NCBI GenBank assembly: GCA_023659985.1
Contig: JAGXOH010000003.1
Span: 1-40,799, forward strand
DNA: 40,799 nt
Direction of reading: 5' to 3'
From: Candidatus Falkowbacteria bacterium LH_S3
Lineage (GTDB): Bacteria > Patescibacteriota > Patescibacteriia > Patescibacteriales > JAGXOH01
Positions 7,159-36,123 of this stretch are shown here, piece after piece. The notes beneath the pieces were generated by a model. That model did not search any database, had not been told where the DNA came from, and was given only the letters and a program-made list of their open reading frames with translations. Within the stretch, counting starts at the first letter, position 1. Every line of letters begins with the position of its first letter. The position numbers and the translations under genes were made by a program.

Positions 7159-7650
7159 GCAAAGCTTAATTGTTGAAAGTTGAAGGTTAAACGTTGAACG
7201 TTGAAGGTAAATTGAATTAAGCAAAGCATTTTAAATTAAGCAAAGCTTAATTGTTGAAGGTTGAAGGTTGAATGTTGAAAGAATAATTTGCCTTCTGCTA
7301 AATTGTTGAAAGTTGAAAGTTGAATGTTGAAAGTAAATTGAATTAAGCAGAGCTTAATTGTTGAAGGTTGAACGTTGAATGTTGAAAGAATAATTTGCCT
7401 TCGACAAATTGTTAAAAATTAAAAGTTGAACGTTGAAGGTTGAAAGAATAATTTGCCTTCTGCTAAATTGTTGAAGGTTGAAGGTTGAATGTTGAAGGTT
7501 GAAGGTTGAACGTTGAAAGAATAATTTGCCTTTGGCAAATTGTTGAAGGTTGAAGGTCGAACGTTGAAAGAATAATTTGCCTTCTGCTAAATTGTTGAAT
7601 GTTGAACGTTGAATGTTGAAAGAATCAATTGAATTAAGCAAAGTTTAGAA
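7150..7650. repeat. Heptad array: TTGAANG units (N = A, G, C or T) alternating with palindromic AT-rich hairpins
   Basis: Read directly: ttgaaag/ttgaagg/ttgaacg/ttgaatg repeated many times, punctuated by aattaagcaaagcttaatt and aatttgcctttggcaaatt. Confidence 0.93.
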
Positions 7651-7656
7651 AACATT

Positions 7657-8961
7657 ATGTCTAGGTTTCAAAAAATAATAGAATATACTCTGTATCTTTT
7701 TGTTTTTCTTTTACCTTTTGGGACGCGTTATTTTATTGAGAAAGGTTTTGTAAATGGAGGTTATTTAGAATACAAAACCATTAGTTTGTATCTTTCGGAC
7801 ATTGTCTTGGTGTTTCTTTTAACATTTTTTTTGGTTCACCAATTTTTAAAAGTAAAAAAGTTTGGCTCTAAACATAATATTTCCTTGATTTGGTGGCTTA
7901 TTTCAGGGTTGGATTTAGCAGTGTTTATTTCCATTTTTCAGTCCCCTGATCATATTTTAGCTCTTTATAAATATGTAGTCTTTTTATTAGGTGTTGGTTT
8001 ATTTTGGGTAATTATTAGAATCAATTATTCTAAAGCCAAACTATATTTCAGCTTGTTGATAGCTTTGGCTATTCAAGCCAGTATTGGGATTTGGCAGTTT
8101 CTTTCCCAATCTGATTTTGCCTCTAAGTGGTTGGGAATGGCTATTCATCTGCCATCTCAAGCAGGAACTTCGGTAGTGGCGGTGGCTAGTCAAGGAGAAA
8201 GATGGTTGCGTGCTTATGGTGGTATGGATCACCCAAATATATTGGGAGGAGCATTAGTTATAGGAATACTTTTAACAATTTGGATGTTGGTCACTCCAAA
8301 AGGACAGAGGATAAAGGACAAAATTATACATTACGTCCTACTATTTGTTTTCACAACAGCTATTTTTTTTACTTTTTCTCGCTCTTCCTGGTTAAGTCTG
8401 TTTGTCGGATGTTTTATCATCTTAACTTTGAATTACACAAAAGGAGAAAAGAGAATTGCCAGGCAAGTCACTAAAGTTTTGGGGGTAATGGCAGTTTTGG
8501 TGGTTGTTTTAGTGGTGCAATTCCAAAATCTTGTCAATACTCGATTATTCACTACTAGCAGATTAGAAGTTAAGTCCAATGTTAGGCGAGTGGAATTATT
8601 GCAAAGCTCAAGCGATATAATAGGCCAAAATTTTGTTTTCGGGACCGGTGTTGGTAATTATTCTTTGGCTTTAGTTAAAGAAAAGCCGGATCAACCGGCA
8701 TGGACCTATCAGCCGGTGCATAACAGTTTTTTGTTAGTGCTTTCAGAAATAGGCTTTTTCGGTTTTATATTTTTTATTAGTGTGTTGGTATGGATAGGCT
8801 TAATTGTTTATAAGAGAAAAGATTATTTAGGCTTGTCTATTTTGTTTGGTTTGCTAATATTGATGATGTTTGAGCATTGGCTATGGAGCCTTCATTTTGG
8901 AATATTGTTTTTATGGTTAATATTAGGACTAGTGTATAAAAAGCCACAGGTAAGCAGTTAA
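7657..8961 (+). CDS. O-antigen ligase/polymerase-like multi-TM protein
   Basis: Multiple TM segments; GGMDHPNILGGALVIGILL, FTFSRSSWLSLFVG, GTGVGNYSLAL, PVHNSFLLVLSEIGFFGFIFF, typical of the Wzy/O-antigen ligase superfamily. Confidence 0.85.
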   Translation: MSRFQKIIEYTLYLFVFLLPFGTRYFIEKGFVNGGYLEYKTISLYLSDIVLVFLLTFFLVHQFLKVKKFGSKHNISLIWWLISGLDLAVFISIFQSPDHILALYKYVVFLLGVGLFWVIIRINYSKAKLYFSLLIALAIQASIGIWQFLSQSDFASKWLGMAIHLPSQAGTSVVAVASQGERWLRAYGGMDHPNILGGALVIGILLTIWMLVTPKGQRIKDKIIHYVLLFVFTTAIFFTFSRSSWLSLFVGCFIILTLNYTKGEKRIARQVTKVLGVMAVLVVVLVVQFQNLVNTRLFTTSRLEVKSNVRRVELLQSSSDIIGQNFVFGTGVGNYSLALVKEKPDQPAWTYQPVHNSFLLVLSEIGFFGFIFFISVLVWIGLIVYKRKDYLGLSILFGLLILMMFEHWLWSLHFGILFLWLILGLVYKKPQVSS

Positions 8962-29756: not shown

Positions 29757-29836
29757 AATAAAATAATGGTTAATACTCTTAAGTATAAATAAACACTGGC
29801 AAAAATAATTTGTTTTTTATAGCCAGATATAAAAAG

Positions 29837-30100
29837 CTAATTTTTGATTTTAATCATTTTAAACCTTGCGGTCAATCCTGTTAATATTTTAACATTATTT
29901 TCATCGATCTCCAATTTCTTAGCTAAAAATCCGATCAATTCCTTGTTAGCCTTGCCTTTTTCCGCCCGAGCTTTTATATCTATTTTCAATACACCCTTCA
30001 CGACAGATTTTATCTTATTAGCTGGAGCACCTGCTCTAACTTTCACTTTTATCACTATTTCTCTTTCAAATTTTAATCTTTCTTTTAGCTTATTTAACAT
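29837..30100 (-). CDS. DUF167 / YggU family protein
   Basis: VKVRAGAPANKIKSVVKGVLKIDIKARAEKGKANKELIGFLAKKLEI. Confidence 0.88.
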   Translation of the reverse strand: MLNKLKERLKFEREIVIKVKVRAGAPANKIKSVVKGVLKIDIKARAEKGKANKELIGFLAKKLEIDENNVKILTGLTARFKMIKIKN

Positions 30101-30105
30101 AAACT

Positions 30106-31113
30106 TTATTTAATCGTTTTTTTACCTACCAATTGTCCGCAAGCCGCCTTAATATCCTGTCCAAATTTATATCTTTGGATAACTTTTACACCTTTTCTCT
30201 CAAGGATGGCGCGAAATTTATTTATTTGCTGTGGAGTGGAGCCCTTATACCCTTTGGTTGAATTGAATTCTATTAAATTAACCTTTAAATGCTTGCCCAA
30301 TTTTTCTTTTAGCAGATCTGCTAATTTATAAGCTTGAGAAACTGAATCATTAATACCTCTAAGCATTATGTATTCCACCATCACCTCTCTACCTGTATAA
30401 AAAATGTAGTCAGCCACGACATTTAATAACTTATCTATTCCAAACCTTTTATTTACAGGCATTAAAGAGCTCCTTAATTTGTCGCTAGCGGCATTCAAGG
30501 ATATCGCCAAATTAACTTGCATATATTCCTTAGACAATTTTTTAATACCGTCAATAATACCAACGGTAGAAATGGACATCTTTCTAGCTCCTATATTGAA
30601 AAAATCTTTATCATTTAAAAAATGAACAGCCTTAACTACTTCATTGTAATTCAACATTGGCTCCCCCATTCCCATGAATACCACATTGGTTACCTTTTGA
30701 TTTTTATCTTTTAGGTATCTTTCAAATAATAATACTTGTTGTACAATTTCTGTGTACAATAGATTTCTTTTACATCCCAACTTGCCGGTAGCACAAAAAT
30801 TACAACCCATGTTGCATCCCGCTTGGGTTGATACACATACGCTGTTCTGATTTCCATACCTCATTAGAACGGATTCCACAAAATTATCATCAAAACAAAC
30901 AACCGCTTTAACTGTCTTTTTGTCCTTGGATTTAAAAATATCTGCCTCAATTTTCAATGGACAATTCTCCCATAATATCCCTCTTAGTTCTTTGGGTATA
31001 TTGCCAGCCTCCTGCCAAGAACTGATGAATTGTCTGTAGACAGCATCATACACCTGCTTATGCCTGAATTTAGGTTGGTCTTTAAGTATATCTTTTAATT
31101 TTGATAAGTTCAT
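30106..31113 (-). CDS. rlmN: 23S rRNA (adenine2503-C2)-methyltransferase, radical SAM
   Basis: VCVSTQAGCNMGCNFCATGKLG, FMGMGEPMLNYNEV, ISTVGIIDGIKKLS, LAISLNAASDKLRSSLMPVNK, C-terminal DIKAACGQL. Confidence 0.97.
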   Translation of the reverse strand: MNLSKLKDILKDQPKFRHKQVYDAVYRQFISSWQEAGNIPKELRGILWENCPLKIEADIFKSKDKKTVKAVVCFDDNFVESVLMRYGNQNSVCVSTQAGCNMGCNFCATGKLGCKRNLLYTEIVQQVLLFERYLKDKNQKVTNVVFMGMGEPMLNYNEVVKAVHFLNDKDFFNIGARKMSISTVGIIDGIKKLSKEYMQVNLAISLNAASDKLRSSLMPVNKRFGIDKLLNVVADYIFYTGREVMVEYIMLRGINDSVSQAYKLADLLKEKLGKHLKVNLIEFNSTKGYKGSTPQQINKFRAILERKGVKVIQRYKFGQDIKAACGQLVGKKTIK

Positions 31114-31196
31114 ATTATCTAAATTTTTTTATTCTTTTAACTTATGAAAAATTTGCCTCCTAAGGAAAACAAGGAGACAAAAAACGTTCATTGTAT

Positions 31197-31409
31197 TTAT
31201 GCCAACTCTTTGGTCCAATAATGGGTTATCGCCAAAATAAACAAACCAATAAACAATGCTACCCAGGAATTTATTTCCTGGCTTCCCATATGCAAATAAA
31301 CCTCCAATAATCCCCATACCCCCTTCCAAAAAGTAACAACGGCACACCCGATCAACAAACTAAAGATCGCTTGTTTAAAAGGTTTTAATTTTTGAATTCT
31401 GTGAAACAT
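31197..31409 (-). CDS. Small two-TM hypothetical protein
   Basis: 70 aa with two hydrophobic segments; no family recognised. Confidence 0.5.
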   Translation of the reverse strand: MFHRIQKLKPFKQAIFSLLIGCAVVTFWKGVWGLLEVYLHMGSQEINSWVALFIGLFILAITHYWTKELA

Positions 31410-31794
31410 AGATTATAAATTATAAATTAAAAAAACATAAACAAAATTGTCACAATTACTAAACCCAATGCAAACCTTTTTTGAATGAAAAATACTTGAT
31501 TAACTCCATTCCACATCTTCACCCGCCTGTTAGACTGAAAGATTTTTTGTGATGGTGCGGTTTACATTCATTTCAAATAATATATTGTACAATATTATTA
31601 TTAAAAAACGTTTCTTAATTTAAAAGCCCTGAAATTTACACCTTCGGTCTTTTTTATTGGAGCATAGTCAAAGTCAAACCTACCTTGATGAGATTTGACC
31701 TTGAGAAACCAAAACTGCTTGATAATGAGCGAGTATTATTCAGGCATAGCCCCTCCTTCTTCAATATCTATTATCTGAACTCTTAGACTGAACT

Positions 31795-33306
31795 TTAGGA
31801 GCCGAAAAGCTCTTCAACTTTTCTAAATTCATCTCCAATGTCATCCCTTTTATCCAAACGATTTCCCTTGGAATTTTCTCTAGGAATAACTCTTACTTTA
31901 GCATTGATGAAAGCATTCTTGATCTTCTGCTGAAGTTCTTTAACAACTTCACCTTCACTCCGCTCCTCTTTAATTGTTACATTAGATACCAGGTAAACAA
32001 CCCTGGTTCCATCTGAAAAAAATCCTTTTTCTTTAGAGTATCCAACACCTGATGGAACAACTTGAATCCCTTTTTTTTGAAAGTAATCAAAATCAATTTC
32101 AAGTGGCTCTCCTTTTGTATAGGATCCAGGATAACCTCTTTGTCCATCAGGTCCACCGGGTCCAACCACTAACGCAACACAAATTGAAATCTGGCTATTC
32201 CTGATCTCAGGACGAACTATATCAAAGTTTCCTTCAATCGCTGCCTGAAAAAGTGAACCAAGATTTCTAATTCGTTTTATCATCGGCTGCCATTCCGGTT
32301 CTCCAGGACGGACATTAACTTCCGATACTTGAATTGAGATTGGTCTTCCCTTATTGTCTATTTTCACAAAACATCCAGGATAGAGGACACAAGGCCTCAA
32401 GTGGTCCTTCTCTTTAAGAAATTGTATAAGAGGCATTGCAATTTGTTCTTTAACCATCTTCCTGAGGCGAAGAGATTCAAAGGGATGTGGAGAAATACTC
32501 CCCATACCTCCAGTAATAGGGTTTTGCGTTCCTCTTTCAGCAGCATATCTTTCTGGATAATCCATAGCAGTTGGCAACATACGAAATCTGCCATATCTGT
32601 CAACAAGAATAGTAAAGCTTATTTCCACTCCACTCATCAAAGACTCAATAAGCAATGGCCATTCTTTGTTGCTGTGAATTCTCTTGTAGTTGCTTTGATA
32701 ATCACGGATCAATTGATCGTAAACTGGTTTTATATCAAAAATTTTTTGGATCAATCTGGCTCCTTTGCCTCCTGCGCTATAGGGGTATTTCAATACAGCA
32801 CCACCGTAATCCTGGACTAGAGAAATGCATATCTTACGAATTTTTTCAAAATTCTTAGCATCTACTTTAAACCATTTGTCAGCTACTGGTATTTTAAATT
32901 CATCGCAGTAATATTTTGTCCAGATCTTGTCACCTTCTAGTCTGGCAGCCTTCGAGGTCAAGCCAATCACCTTGTCGCCATAGCCTACTTCAATAAGCCT
33001 ATCCACAAAACCCTCAAAAAGCAAGTCTTCCGGCATTGGAACAACGCAATCAAGTTCGCCATTTTTCAAAGCTTTCAGTGTTGCCTGAAAATAGGCTTCA
33101 ACAGAATTGTCTTCAGTTGGAATGAAGTCAATTGGGTGACCAAGTTTTTTCTGAAATTCAGGCTGTCCAGAAGTTCCACGAACAATAATTCCCTTATAAC
33201 GACCACTTTCCACTTCGCTTTTGGCAGTAGAAACCACTTGAGCGCTTAAATAAGTCCTGCCGTCGGTTCCTGCAAATCCGATTTTGTAATCACTTGTTAT
33301 TTTCAT
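31795..33306 (-). CDS. PurD-like ATP-grasp protein (phosphoribosylamine-glycine ligase family)
   Basis: ATP-grasp core AVLKYPYSAGGKGARLIQK, LIESLMSGVEISFTILVDRYG, NPITGGMGSISPHP, CVLYPGCFVKIDNKGRPISIQVSEVNVRPGEPEWQ; C-terminal GYPGSYTKGEPLEI...DGTRVVYLV...RDDIG. Confidence 0.82.
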   Translation of the reverse strand: MKITSDYKIGFAGTDGRTYLSAQVVSTAKSEVESGRYKGIIVRGTSGQPEFQKKLGHPIDFIPTEDNSVEAYFQATLKALKNGELDCVVPMPEDLLFEGFVDRLIEVGYGDKVIGLTSKAARLEGDKIWTKYYCDEFKIPVADKWFKVDAKNFEKIRKICISLVQDYGGAVLKYPYSAGGKGARLIQKIFDIKPVYDQLIRDYQSNYKRIHSNKEWPLLIESLMSGVEISFTILVDRYGRFRMLPTAMDYPERYAAERGTQNPITGGMGSISPHPFESLRLRKMVKEQIAMPLIQFLKEKDHLRPCVLYPGCFVKIDNKGRPISIQVSEVNVRPGEPEWQPMIKRIRNLGSLFQAAIEGNFDIVRPEIRNSQISICVALVVGPGGPDGQRGYPGSYTKGEPLEIDFDYFQKKGIQVVPSGVGYSKEKGFFSDGTRVVYLVSNVTIKEERSEGEVVKELQQKIKNAFINAKVRVIPRENSKGNRLDKRDDIGDEFRKVEELFGS

Positions 33307-33311
33307 TCCTC

Positions 33312-33480
33312 TTTTTGTTTTGTTTATTTTTCTGTTAAATATATCTATTTCTCTATTTCCAAAAACTAAATTTTCATTCTTTTTTTCGACTTTTTAGTTA
33401 TCCACATTTTTATTTCTTGACAAGTAATATTGGCTTGATATACTGATAATGTCTTTCGGTTCTAGATAGAACCGTTAGGG
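33312..33480. repeat. 169-bp duplicated module, copy 1 (upstream of the purD-like gene)
   Basis: Gapless match to 34085-34253 (constant offset 773) with 8 differences counted by eye, all transitions. Confidence 0.95.
33417..33444 (+). promoter_or_regulatory. Promoter TTGACA - 16 nt - TATACT, copy 1
   Basis: ttgaca 33417-33422, tatact 33439-33444. Confidence 0.75.
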
Positions 33481-33522
33481 TTATACATCCTAGGGCCACC
33501 CTCTTAGTTGAGGGTGGTTTTT
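33450..33522 (+). ncRNA. Putative small RNA, copy 1, with 5' hairpin and terminator
   Basis: CGGTTCT-AGAT-AGAACCG (33457-33474), then CCACCCTC-TTAGTT-GAGGGTGG-TTTTT (33496-33522), downstream of the promoter; no ORF. Confidence 0.65.
33496..33522 (+). terminator. Rho-independent terminator
   Basis: 8-bp perfect stem followed by TTTTT. Confidence 0.85.
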
Positions 33523-33530
33523 GTTTATAC

Positions 33531-34115
33531 TCATTCATTTTCGCGATATTTTAAATCCTTTCCCCATAATTCATTTATATCTTTCAAATCAAAGTAATCA
33601 TCCCCGCTGGTTTTTAGTTCGTGAGAGATATTATCTTTTGACGAAAAGATATAGACCTTTTTGCCACTGTTTTTCAAATAATTCACTAATGCTAAAAAAT
33701 CGGCGTCACCACTGAAAAAGATCGCTATGTTATATTTCTGGATGTTATGCATTGCGTCAATCGTTATTTCCACATCCATATTTCCTTTTTCTATGATAGA
33801 TTCTCCACTTTCGCTAATAACAGAGATTCTTTTTAACTCTTTTTTTCTTACGATAAAACCAAGCCCTTTCTTGAGATAAGTAAAAAATTTATGCTTTCCA
33901 TCCAAGTCATAATCTCTTGTCCCTGCTTTTGGATAAGCGTCATAATAAAAAATTTCAACTTGGTCTGCATTAAAATTTCTCCTAAAATAATCTTTAAGAG
34001 TTTTGTATTCAATAAACTTTTTTACCGATTTGACCGCATTCCAAATATTTGAAGCGTCAATAAAAACATACACTGTGTTTTCTGTTTTTGTTTTGTTTAT
34101 TTTTCTGTTAAACAT
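33531..34115 (-). CDS. NYN domain (LabA/DUF88-like, PIN-like) protein, putative RNase
   Basis: VYVFIDASNIWNAVK, EKGNMDVEITIDAMHN, AIFFSGDADFLALVNYLKNSGKKVYIFS; conserved acidic positions retained. Confidence 0.88.
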   Translation of the reverse strand: MFNRKINKTKTENTVYVFIDASNIWNAVKSVKKFIEYKTLKDYFRRNFNADQVEIFYYDAYPKAGTRDYDLDGKHKFFTYLKKGLGFIVRKKELKRISVISESGESIIEKGNMDVEITIDAMHNIQKYNIAIFFSGDADFLALVNYLKNSGKKVYIFSSKDNISHELKTSGDDYFDLKDINELWGKDLKYRENE

Positions 34116-34253
34116 ATCTATTTCTCTATTTCCAAAAATTAAATTTTTGTTCTTTTTTTCGACTTTTTAGTTACCCACATTTTTACTTCTTGACAAGTAA
34201 TATTGGCTTAATATACTGATAATGTCTTTCGGTTCTGGATAGAACCGTTAGGG
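34085..34253. repeat. 169-bp duplicated module, copy 2 (includes the first 10 codons of the NYN gene)
   Basis: Partner of 33312-33480. Confidence 0.95.
34190..34217 (+). promoter_or_regulatory. Promoter TTGACA - 16 nt - TATACT, copy 2
   Basis: ttgaca 34190-34195, tatact 34212-34217. Confidence 0.75.
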
Positions 34254-34295
34254 TACTACATCCAAGAGCAGTCCTCCTCGCGGAGGGCTGTTTTT
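34224..34295 (+). ncRNA. Putative small RNA, copy 2
   Basis: CGGTTCT-GGAT-AGAACCG (34230-34247), terminator CAGTCCTCC-TCGC-GGAGGGCTG-TTTTT (34269-34295). Confidence 0.65.
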
Positions 34296-34324
34296 ATTTC
34301 TTTCCCTCTTTATACTTTAATTCT

Positions 34325-34552
34325 TTACCCCAAATATCTTCTTCTATTCTTAATAAACATCTTACCATAACCATAGTAAGTTTTTAAATATTTTTCTCGA
34401 TGAGTGGCATCTTGCTGGTTTAAACAAGATTCATAATATATTAGTTTTAATGGCCTCCTATCTTTTGTTGACTCAATTAATCCTTTTTTATGTTGCTCAA
34501 ATCTTAATTTTAAATTTTCGGTATATCCAATATAAAACTTTTTGTCTTTCAT
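34325..34552 (-). CDS. GIY-YIG nuclease-like ORF, N-terminally truncated
   Basis: KKFYIGYTENLKLRFEQHKKG...RRPLKLIYYESCLNQQDATHREKYLKT; the first (GIY) strand is absent and an in-frame TAG lies 2 codons upstream. Confidence 0.75.
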   Translation of the reverse strand: MKDKKFYIGYTENLKLRFEQHKKGLIESTKDRRPLKLIYYESCLNQQDATHREKYLKTYYGYGKMFIKNRRRYLG

Positions 34553-34608
34553 TGACTACAAAACAACTAAATAAGTTGCTGATCCGTAGTGATTAACTCA
34601 ACTTGTTT

Positions 34609-35481
34609 TTATTCACCTTTTGATACTTCTCGCACGAATACACTGTAAGTTTCGCCACTATCTAAAATAATCTTGATAACCTTGCCATTTACTTCAACAG
34701 AGGTGACTTTTTGACCCTCAATTCCTTCTTTAATTCCAGATAATCCGTCCGTGATTTGTTTCTCATGTTGTTCTTTAGCAGTGCCAATTTCAGACGGTTC
34801 GCCAAAATTTAATCCCAACGGTAATTCTTCCTCATGAGAAATGCCAATTTCGGTTTTAGCCGGCCCGAACTTGCTGGCTGGTTGGTAAAAACCAACACCT
34901 GGAATATTCTTGTAGTGTCTGTATCCTGCGGCAATCGTATGGGTCAAATAGAGAGGTCCACGACCGGAAATTAACACGGGTTTTGAAGGATCAACGTCAG
35001 GAGGAATGACTTTGTCCAAATCCTCAACCTTAAAATCGCCCGCGAGATTAAACTCAACAAGAGTATAATCTTCAGTTTCTTTTTTGACCCATGTAAATCC
35101 TTCTGGCCCGCGCCCTTCGCCTTCAGGTAATGGCTCTAAAACTTTAGTCTCACCCTTGGTCATTTCCCCTTCTGCGTCTTTTGACATGTAGGTGAAATAT
35201 CCCTCTGCCGGGTGCACGCCGTGCAACAAACTGGCAATTACCCCGGGCGAAGCAACACCGTCAATAACAATGCCTTCGGCTTTTTCATCGCGAGCAAATT
35301 TTTCAGCGTATTCGTACGCCAATCGGTCATGCTCCGGACCAAAAGTAATGCGGCCCTGTTGATCGGGTTGTAACCCAATCTCGCGGGCAAAATCGTTAAT
35401 CGACAACTTTTCAATTTTTGACTCGCCTTCTTTGATTTCTTGAGGCATCTGTGCCTCAGGTGTGAAATTTTTTTCGTTCAT
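34609..35481 (-). CDS. Csx3-like domain protein (CRISPR-associated ring nuclease superfamily resemblance) with possible internal duplication
   Basis: YTLVEFNLAGDFKVEDLDKVIPPDVDPSKPVLISGRGPLYLTHTIAAGYRHYKNIPGVGFYQPAS...TEIGISH fits a remembered Csx3 pattern (..L.P.vdp..GvvisGRGPiWLy..L......vavydP...vvvSH). SD aaagga before the ATG. Confidence 0.65.
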   Translation of the reverse strand: MNEKNFTPEAQMPQEIKEGESKIEKLSINDFAREIGLQPDQQGRITFGPEHDRLAYEYAEKFARDEKAEGIVIDGVASPGVIASLLHGVHPAEGYFTYMSKDAEGEMTKGETKVLEPLPEGEGRGPEGFTWVKKETEDYTLVEFNLAGDFKVEDLDKVIPPDVDPSKPVLISGRGPLYLTHTIAAGYRHYKNIPGVGFYQPASKFGPAKTEIGISHEEELPLGLNFGEPSEIGTAKEQHEKQITDGLSGIKEGIEGQKVTSVEVNGKVIKIILDSGETYSVFVREVSKGE

Positions 35482-35622
35482 AGTATTTGTCCTTTCTAAA
35501 AATTAAATTCCGGTCAGATCTTCAAAACTAACTTAAACCCTATTTCAGTTAGATAGTTAAATTGCTTGACACGACCGGCGATTATTCCATTGATCAATAA
35601 TTGCAAAAAAACATCTGTCATT

Positions 35623-35838
35623 TTATTGTATTAAATTATCTAAATTGACGCTAAGCGCTTTGGCTATTTTTGCACGGTGTTCATTGTTGGACTTTGAATT
35701 GCACCTGACTCTATTTTAATAATCGTATTATGAGAAATATCAGCGAGTTTGGACAATTTGTCCTACGCCAAATTCCGTTGTTTCCGCAACTTTTTTATAT
35801 TCTTCGCTATTGTTGTTTTTTGTTTTAGATACAGACAT
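35623..35838 (-). pseudogene. XRE-family HTH regulator pseudogene
   Basis: Minus-strand reading IKKLRKQRNLA*DKLSKLADISHNTIIKIESGAIQSPTMNTVQK, then a frameshift to IAKALSVNLDNLIQ*: one in-frame TAG and one frameshift. Confidence 0.75.
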
Positions 35839-35990
35839 TTGGCGGTTTTAATTAACTGATAATAGCACCTGATTGGGCGATTTTCCACTCAAACCGCAAT
35901 GAGCCAAATTATTGTAATAGATTCCACAATCTAAGCTTATAATTAAGCTTACAGACATTCTTAACCCCGATTTTGTCATAAAAAGATTCT

Positions 35991-36067
35991 TGGTCGGGGA
36001 TGTGGGACTTGAACCCACGACCTCCACAACCCGAATGTGGCGCCCTAGCCATCTGGGCCAATCCCCG
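35991..36067 (-). tRNA. tRNA-Pro(CGG), CCA encoded
   Basis: Reverse complement CGGGGAT...CCACA-TTCGGGT-TGTGG...ATCCCCG-A-CCA; C1:G72. Confidence 0.95.
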
Positions 36068-36123
36068 CTGAATAATTTTCAATTCACAATTTCTAATTAT
36101 CTCAACTATTCTTGATCCAATTT

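What the first reader, a model, noticed from the sequence alone, without database searches (positions are those of the whole stretch)
34609..35481. Csx3-like (CRISPR ring-nuclease-like) domain with no CRISPR-cas genes in the window
The stretch FKVEDLDKVIPPDVDPSKPVLISGRGPLYLTHTIAAGYRHYKNIPGVGFYQPASKFGPAKTEIGISH resembles Csx3, a family reported to act on cyclic tetra-adenylate in type III CRISPR signalling. No cas genes or CRISPR array are visible here. The protein has about 120 extra N-terminal residues and a C-terminal small domain. If the call holds, it could be a repurposed or viral-type anti-signalling protein, or part of a non-CRISPR nucleotide-signalling system.
Basis: partly seen in the sequence, partly recalled or inferred. 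Interest (0 to 1): 0.74.

Follow-up and report, generated by a model that had tools for sequence, protein, structure and literature searches.

The report
Split-site tandem Csx3 protein, no CRISPR
A small-genome (Patescibacteria-type) bacterium carries a real relative of the CRISPR signal-destroying protein Csx3, but it is a lopsided double copy that lacks the complete cutting site in either half and sits in a genome with no detectable CRISPR genes; in related genomes it belongs to a helicase- and ATPase-containing gene cluster that may be an undescribed defence or RNA-response system.

Summary
The 290-aa ORF (34609-35481, minus strand) is a genuine Csx3 homologue: Pfam Cas_csx3 above its cut-off, AfCsx3 in the PDB at E~2e-6, and a confident model (pLDDT 83) whose 13 best PDB matches are all AfCsx3. 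It is not an ordinary Csx3. The 'extra' N-terminus looks like a second, diverged Csx3 copy (profile evidence; Foldseek on it alone did not confirm). Conserved residues are shared out: the C copy keeps the ligand-binding SGR and H80 but has lost H57, D69 and R71; the N copy keeps H57 and H60 but not SGR. No Cas10 palm or Cas1 was found in its genome (77.5% complete). Among 382 genomes of the phylum, Csx3/P-loop genes and Cas10 never coincide. Relatives sit beside a HrpA-like DEAH helicase and a P-loop NTPase, some also beside an HD-hydrolase protein or RavA/VWA genes. The window copy is an orphan, probably acquired horizontally (76.6% identity to another family, GC 44% against 35%). Best reading: an asymmetric oligonucleotide-binding pseudo-dimer from a CRISPR-independent module, not a proven ring nuclease. 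No phage or plasmid relative was found, so an anti-CRISPR role is unsupported.

The parts
34609..35481 (-). tandem Csx3-like protein, 290 aa, ATG start
34786..35097 (-). C-terminal Csx3 copy (residues 129-232): keeps SGRGP and H80 equivalent H216; D69->Q200, R71->A202, H57->A185, H60->R188 (H189 next to it)
   Evidence: profile of this copy hits AfCsx3 at E 4e-16; Foldseek; alignment A3
35122..35403 (-). N-terminal diverged Csx3-like copy (residues 27-120): DG at the SGR position, H87 and H90 at the H57 and H60 positions
   Evidence: hhalign E about 1e-5, score 29.0 against at most 11.2 in 199 column shuffles; Pfam Cas_csx3 best E 0.0012, in two of six N copies; four of five PDB hits at E<=1 are AfCsx3 in register, E 0.6-0.9; isolated-domain Foldseek gave no hit at 1e-3
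34960..34968 (-). SGR motif (residues 172-174), equivalent to cA4-binding S44-G45-R46 of AfCsx3
   Evidence: alignment; PMC7371418
35212..35223 (-). H87-x-x-H90 motif, equivalent to H57 and H60 of AfCsx3
   Evidence: invariant in alignments A4 and A5
34612..34797 (-). C-terminal helix plus three-strand domain, unassigned, only in the short form (G000, G008, G057)
   Evidence: DSSP of model; alignment A3
35623..35838 (-). remnant of an Xre-type HTH gene, broken by frameshifts, between tRNA-Pro and the Csx3 gene
   Evidence: read directly from the sequence; not scored by a tool
35991..36067 (-). tRNA-Pro(cgg) 510 bp upstream; sister cassettes also start after a tRNA-Pro
   Evidence: no att-like direct repeat found

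Best explanation
The gene encodes a fused, asymmetric Csx3 pseudo-dimer. A duplication gave two copies that then divided the ancestral site: the C copy retains the SGR/H80 ligand-contact residues and the N copy retains the H57/H60 histidine pair. The protein most likely binds an oligonucleotide (cyclic or linear oligo-A, or an RNA 3' end) in a composite, one-per-dimer pocket and acts mainly as a sensor or slow processing subunit, not as a classical symmetric cA4 ring nuclease. In related Patescibacteria it is one component of a CRISPR-independent locus with a P-loop NTPase and a HrpA-like DEAH helicase, plus in some genomes an HD-hydrolase protein or RavA/VWA genes. In this genome the cassette has been reduced to, or arrived as, the Csx3 gene alone, by horizontal transfer into a variable region. 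Shown: homology, distribution of residues, neighbourhoods, no detected Cas10. Inferred: tandem-copy origin (moderate support), ligand, activity, defence role.
For: Csx3 homology. N copy as Csx3-like by profile with shuffle control. Invariant columns: N copy D-G, H57, H60; C copy G45, R46, Y59, Q-P, H80. Purifying selection between the window gene and G008: dN 0.165, dS 2.6 (dS near saturation). Helicase within a few kb of the Csx3-like or P-loop gene in six genomes (G008, G057, G018, G089, G048, G183), while this type of helicase is found in only 17 of 382 genomes. Cas10 palm in 10 of 382 genomes, Csx3/P-loop family in 9, overlap 0. RavA/MoxR plus VWA beside the P-loop-Csx3-Csx3 gene in G147, RavA in G020.
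Against: Foldseek on the isolated N copy gave no Csx3 hit; its front half differs from Csx3. The composite pocket is not modelled as a complex. The window genome itself lacks the helicase and the 661-aa P-loop partner, so the module does not operate here as a unit unless the genes lie in the missing 22%. Helicase linkage is not universal: G336, G147, G403, G453 and G020 lack it nearby, and G226 and G171 have the helicase without a Csx3 or P-loop neighbour. No ligand data.
Confidence: 0.45

Rival explanations
1. It is a working ring nuclease: the N-copy histidines and C-copy SGR/H80 form one complete site in head-to-tail oligomers and degrade cA4 or another cyclic oligonucleotide, made by a Cas10 in the unsequenced 22% or by a non-Cas10 synthase.
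For: AfCsx3 activity needs residues from two faces of different dimers and is restored by mixing H60A and D69A mutants (PMC7371418), so split sites can work; D102 of the N copy may stand for D69.
Against: R71 is lost in both copies of the short form, D69 is Q in the C copy and only 4 of 6 N copies have D; no Cas10 palm in any carrier genome tested, including near-complete ones.
Confidence: 0.2
2. It is an RNA-binding or RNA 3'-end-processing accessory of the HrpA-like helicase, concerned with RNA surveillance rather than second messengers.
For: Helicase adjacency, helicase about 35% identical to enterobacterial HrpA; AfCsx3 binds RNA, though more weakly than cA4 (PMC7371418).
Against: The window genome has no detectable copy of this helicase; no data on RNA binding.
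Confidence: 0.2
3. It is a mobile-element-borne anti-defence protein (sponge or destroyer of a signalling nucleotide).
For: Patchy distribution, foreign GC, variable region next to a tRNA.
Against: No phage, plasmid or viral-structure relative; sister copies lie in multi-gene chromosomal clusters, with no integrase noticed.
Confidence: 0.07
4. It is a functionless relic left after the rest of the cassette was lost.
For: Orphan; partner genes absent; broken HTH gene alongside.
Against: Intact 290-codon frame with pairwise dN/dS about 0.06 against G008, although that ratio averages over both lineages.
Confidence: 0.08

Closest known systems
Csx3/Crn3 (AF1864; PF09620, TIGR02579)
   Same: Fold, SGRGP motif, H80 and Y59 in the C copy; HxxH in the N copy
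   Different: Two copies per chain, catalytic residues split or lost, extra C-terminal domain, no type III locus; below the NCBIfam equivalog cut-off (29.3 against 55.4 bits)
C3a67 AAA-Csx3 and cyanobacterial Csx3-AAA of type III loci (PADLOC PDLC01059, PDLC01045)
   Same: Csx3 copies linked to the same P-loop NTPase family in sister genomes (G048, G089, G020: E 1e-36 to 1e-53)
   Different: The window protein has no P-loop domain (only the Csx3 part matches, 27.7 bits); the cyanobacterial cases examined lie in or beside CRISPR loci
Csx3 in MoxR-vWA conflict systems (Leptolyngbya; PMC7159879)
   Same: A published Csx3 outside ordinary cas operons; RavA/MoxR and VWA lie beside the P-loop-Csx3-Csx3 gene in G147, RavA also in G020
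   Different: No RavA/VWA beside the window gene; domain order differs; relation not tested
SAVED domains (CBASS receptors Cap4, Cap5)
   Same: Two fused CARF-like units forming one oligonucleotide site; weak fold match over both halves (7yia, prob 0.97, E 9e-3)
   Different: E-value not significant, rmsd about 6 angstrom; Csx3 is STAS-like; only an analogy

Membership tests
Csx3/Crn3 superfamily (domain level) | sequence and fold similarity to AfCsx3 | tested here: met
Csx3/Crn3 ring nuclease (equivalog) | score above the NCBIfam TIGR02579 cut-off | tested here: not met
   29.3 against 55.4 bits
Csx3/Crn3 ring nuclease (equivalog) | H60, D69, R71 and H80 present in one subunit | tested here: not met
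   C copy: H80 only (H189 one residue off H60); N copy: H57, H60, possible D69
Csx3/Crn3 ring nuclease (equivalog) | cA4-contacting S44-G45-R46 | tested here: met
   S172-G173-R174 in the C copy
Csx3/Crn3 ring nuclease (equivalog) | encoded with a type III CRISPR-Cas system | tested here: not met
   no Cas10 palm or Cas1 in G000; bin 77.5% complete, so absence is not final
Csx3/Crn3 ring nuclease (equivalog) | Mn-dependent cleavage of cA4 by head-to-tail oligomers | not testable with these tools
   needs biochemistry
C3a67 / AAA-Csx3 | P-loop NTPase domain in the same chain | tested here: not met
   only residues 125-191 match, in the Csx3 part of the profile; in G008 a P-loop-like sequence (GDPNSGKSV) sits in a separate 661-aa protein (weak match to the AAA domain, E 3e-5)
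viral anti-CRISPR ring nuclease (AcrIII-1 type) | encoded by viruses | tested here: not met
   no phage or plasmid relative; no viral fold match at 1e-3; IMG/VR scan failed
SAVED/CARF sensor | significant fold match | tested here: inconclusive
   E about 1e-2

The most novel reading that the evidence does not exclude
Patescibacteria carry an undescribed CRISPR-independent conflict or RNA-response module in which a fused Csx3 pair with a divided active site works with a P-loop NTPase, a HrpA-like DEAH helicase and, in some genomes, an HD-hydrolase protein or RavA/VWA partners; the ligand is made without Cas10.
Probability: 0.4. Interest if true: 0.75.

Novelty: new variant of a known kind. Interest (0 to 1): 0.52.

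Why it matters
Csx3 is known as an off-switch for type III CRISPR signalling. A lineage that keeps the fold, splits the essential residues between two fused copies and occurs without Cas10 would show the domain working outside CRISPR, and gives a concrete protein (and a three-gene operon in G008) for asking what it binds and whether Csx3 began as, or became, a part of other systems.

Tried and rejected
Anti-CRISPR of viral origin: no phage or plasmid relatives, no viral fold; the IMG/VR scan failed three times. Foldseek of the N copy alone to prove the duplication: failed, so the duplication rests on sequence profiles. First shuffle control gave an artefact (one of 200 shuffles, a one-column alignment with score 127.5); inspected and set aside. 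Direct N-copy versus C-copy profile comparison: not significant (E 0.06). tRNA att-site repeats: none. Confirming a DHH phosphoesterase in the 661-aa G008 protein by Pfam and PDB: no match; only motifs by eye. Paper searches for Csx3 with Patescibacteria and for cyclic oligoadenylate with Candidate Phyla Radiation: none in the held library.

Full report
Observation. The ORF at 34609-35481 (minus strand, 290 aa) is real, with a ribosome-binding site and ATG. It scores above the Pfam cut-off for Cas_csx3, matches AfCsx3 in the PDB at E ~2e-6 and PADLOC Csx3 at 1.6e-10. An AlphaFold model from nine aligned relatives has mean pLDDT 82.7, and its thirteen best PDB matches are all AfCsx3, TM(target) 0.74-0.80.

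Genome context. The window is contig C50 of a 0.80-Mb, 77.5% complete bin. No Cas10 palm and no Cas1 were found in it. Neighbours are GIY-YIG, NYN, ATP-grasp and housekeeping genes. The gene is probably acquired: GC 0.441 against 0.350 for the window; 76.6% identity to a protein from a different family of the order, whereas SecA is 63% and RseP 50-60% identical to other genomes of the order, including one of the same family; nearest kin G001 lacks it and carries other genes between uppS and the holin-like gene. A tRNA-Pro lies 510 bp upstream, and in G008 and G057 the sister cassette also follows a tRNA-Pro, but no att repeats were seen. Between tRNA and gene lies a frameshifted Xre-type HTH remnant (direct reading).

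Anatomy. AfCsx3 needs H60 and D69, with R71 and H80 important; S44-G45-R46 contact cA4 (PMC7371418). In the C copy of the window protein SGR and H80 are kept, D69 is Q, R71 is A, H57 is A, H60 is R with a neighbouring H. The residues 27-120 align with canonical Csx3 so that H57 and H60 are kept but SGR is DGV. Support for this second copy: hhalign E ~1e-5, score 29.0 against a maximum of 11.2 in 199 column shuffles, one further shuffle being a one-column artefact; Pfam Cas_csx3 matches two of six N copies, best E 0.0012; AfCsx3 chains make up four of the five PDB hits at E<=1, though none is significant alone. Against: N versus C copy directly is not significant, and Foldseek of the isolated N copy finds no Csx3. 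I take the duplication as likely, not proved. Across six divergent members the invariant positions are D-G, H57, H60 in the N copy and G45, R46, Y59, Q-P, H80 in the C copy: the ancestral site appears divided between the copies. Two further members (G089, G147) have lost the N-copy histidines.

Relatives. Short-form relatives occur in G008, G057 and, as a contig-end fragment, G018; named records are Candidatus Falkowbacteria UBA1359, Patescibacteria UR.bin45 and Falkowbacteria CG23. Longer relatives carry an N-terminal P-loop NTPase and match PADLOC C3a67. In G008 the order is a 661-aa protein with a P-loop, a HrpA-like DEAH helicase, then the Csx3-like gene; G018 adds a 688-aa protein with a RelA/SpoT-like HD domain. 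The helicase lies beside the Csx3-like or P-loop gene in six genomes but is present in only 17 of 382 genomes of the phylum. It is absent from G000, as is the 661-aa protein. G147 has RavA/MoxR and VWA genes beside its P-loop-Csx3-Csx3 gene, and G020 has a 63% identical RavA. In 382 genomes, nine have Csx3/P-loop family members (two of them P-loop only) and ten have Cas10, with no overlap.

Mechanism. Most likely an asymmetric oligonucleotide-binding pseudo-dimer acting as sensor or slow processor in a CRISPR-independent module, here orphaned. Homology, residue distribution and linkage are shown; ligand, activity and role are inferred. A working ring nuclease with a composite site remains possible, because AfCsx3 mutants of different faces complement each other. 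The weak fold resemblance to SAVED domains, which are also fused two-unit sensors, is an analogy only.

Comparison and novelty. It belongs to the Csx3 superfamily by fold but fails the equivalog cut-off and the catalytic-residue test, so it should not be filed as a Crn3 ring nuclease. A survey of ring nucleases treats Crn3 in type III loci (PMC12409355); a Csx3 domain in MoxR-vWA conflict systems has been noted (PMC7159879). I found no description of the tandem split-site form or the helicase association in the held papers, a limited library. I rate it a new variant of a known kind.

Noticed in passing
L038:6660-8645 (G008), L036:8406-9629 (G048): Proteins in the Csx3 neighbourhoods show DHH-phosphoesterase-like motifs by eye (DHH, DPDADG; order reversed in G048), but Pfam (both) and PDB (G008 only) searches did not confirm this.
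   Followed up: partly
L044 about 7500-7800 (G453): A single-copy Csx3 with all catalytic residues apparently intact lies next to a separate P-loop NTPase gene; no Cas10 palm hit in that genome.
   Followed up: partly
L064, L062, L065 (cyanobacterial plasmids): CRISPR-linked loci with two adjacent csx3 genes, one fused to AAA; in Allocoleopsis the fused copy has lost the catalytic residues, and in Pseudanabaena two copies and AAA are one protein. Paired or degenerate Csx3 may be general.
   Followed up: partly
L035:9865-10359, L037:15498-15995, C-terminus of L041:9757-11589: A conserved ~165-aa family ending in CPW follows, or is fused to, the P-loop-Csx3-Csx3 protein (40-49% identity); no family match in Pfam.
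   Followed up: partly
L041:12505-15424 (G147), L037:18145-19437 (G020): RavA/MoxR ATPase and (G147) ViaA-like VWA genes beside the P-loop-Csx3-Csx3 gene.
   Followed up: partly
L035:3059-6492, L042:5081-8316, L043:5345-8599, L044:13173-17259: A recurrent pair, a TrmB-like regulator and a large protein (some with a GNAT domain), lies within several kb of P-loop/Csx3 genes in four genomes.
   Followed up: no
L045 (G199): A short Csx3-like match on a contig with RAMP-like proteins by eye; no Cas10 palm hit in that genome.
   Followed up: no
window 29757-36123: Variable region between uppS and a holin-like gene; in G001 it holds different genes.
   Followed up: partly
window 7354-7641: Short repeated stretch (QRSTFNLQ-type units) in an intergenic or spurious ORF.
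   Followed up: no
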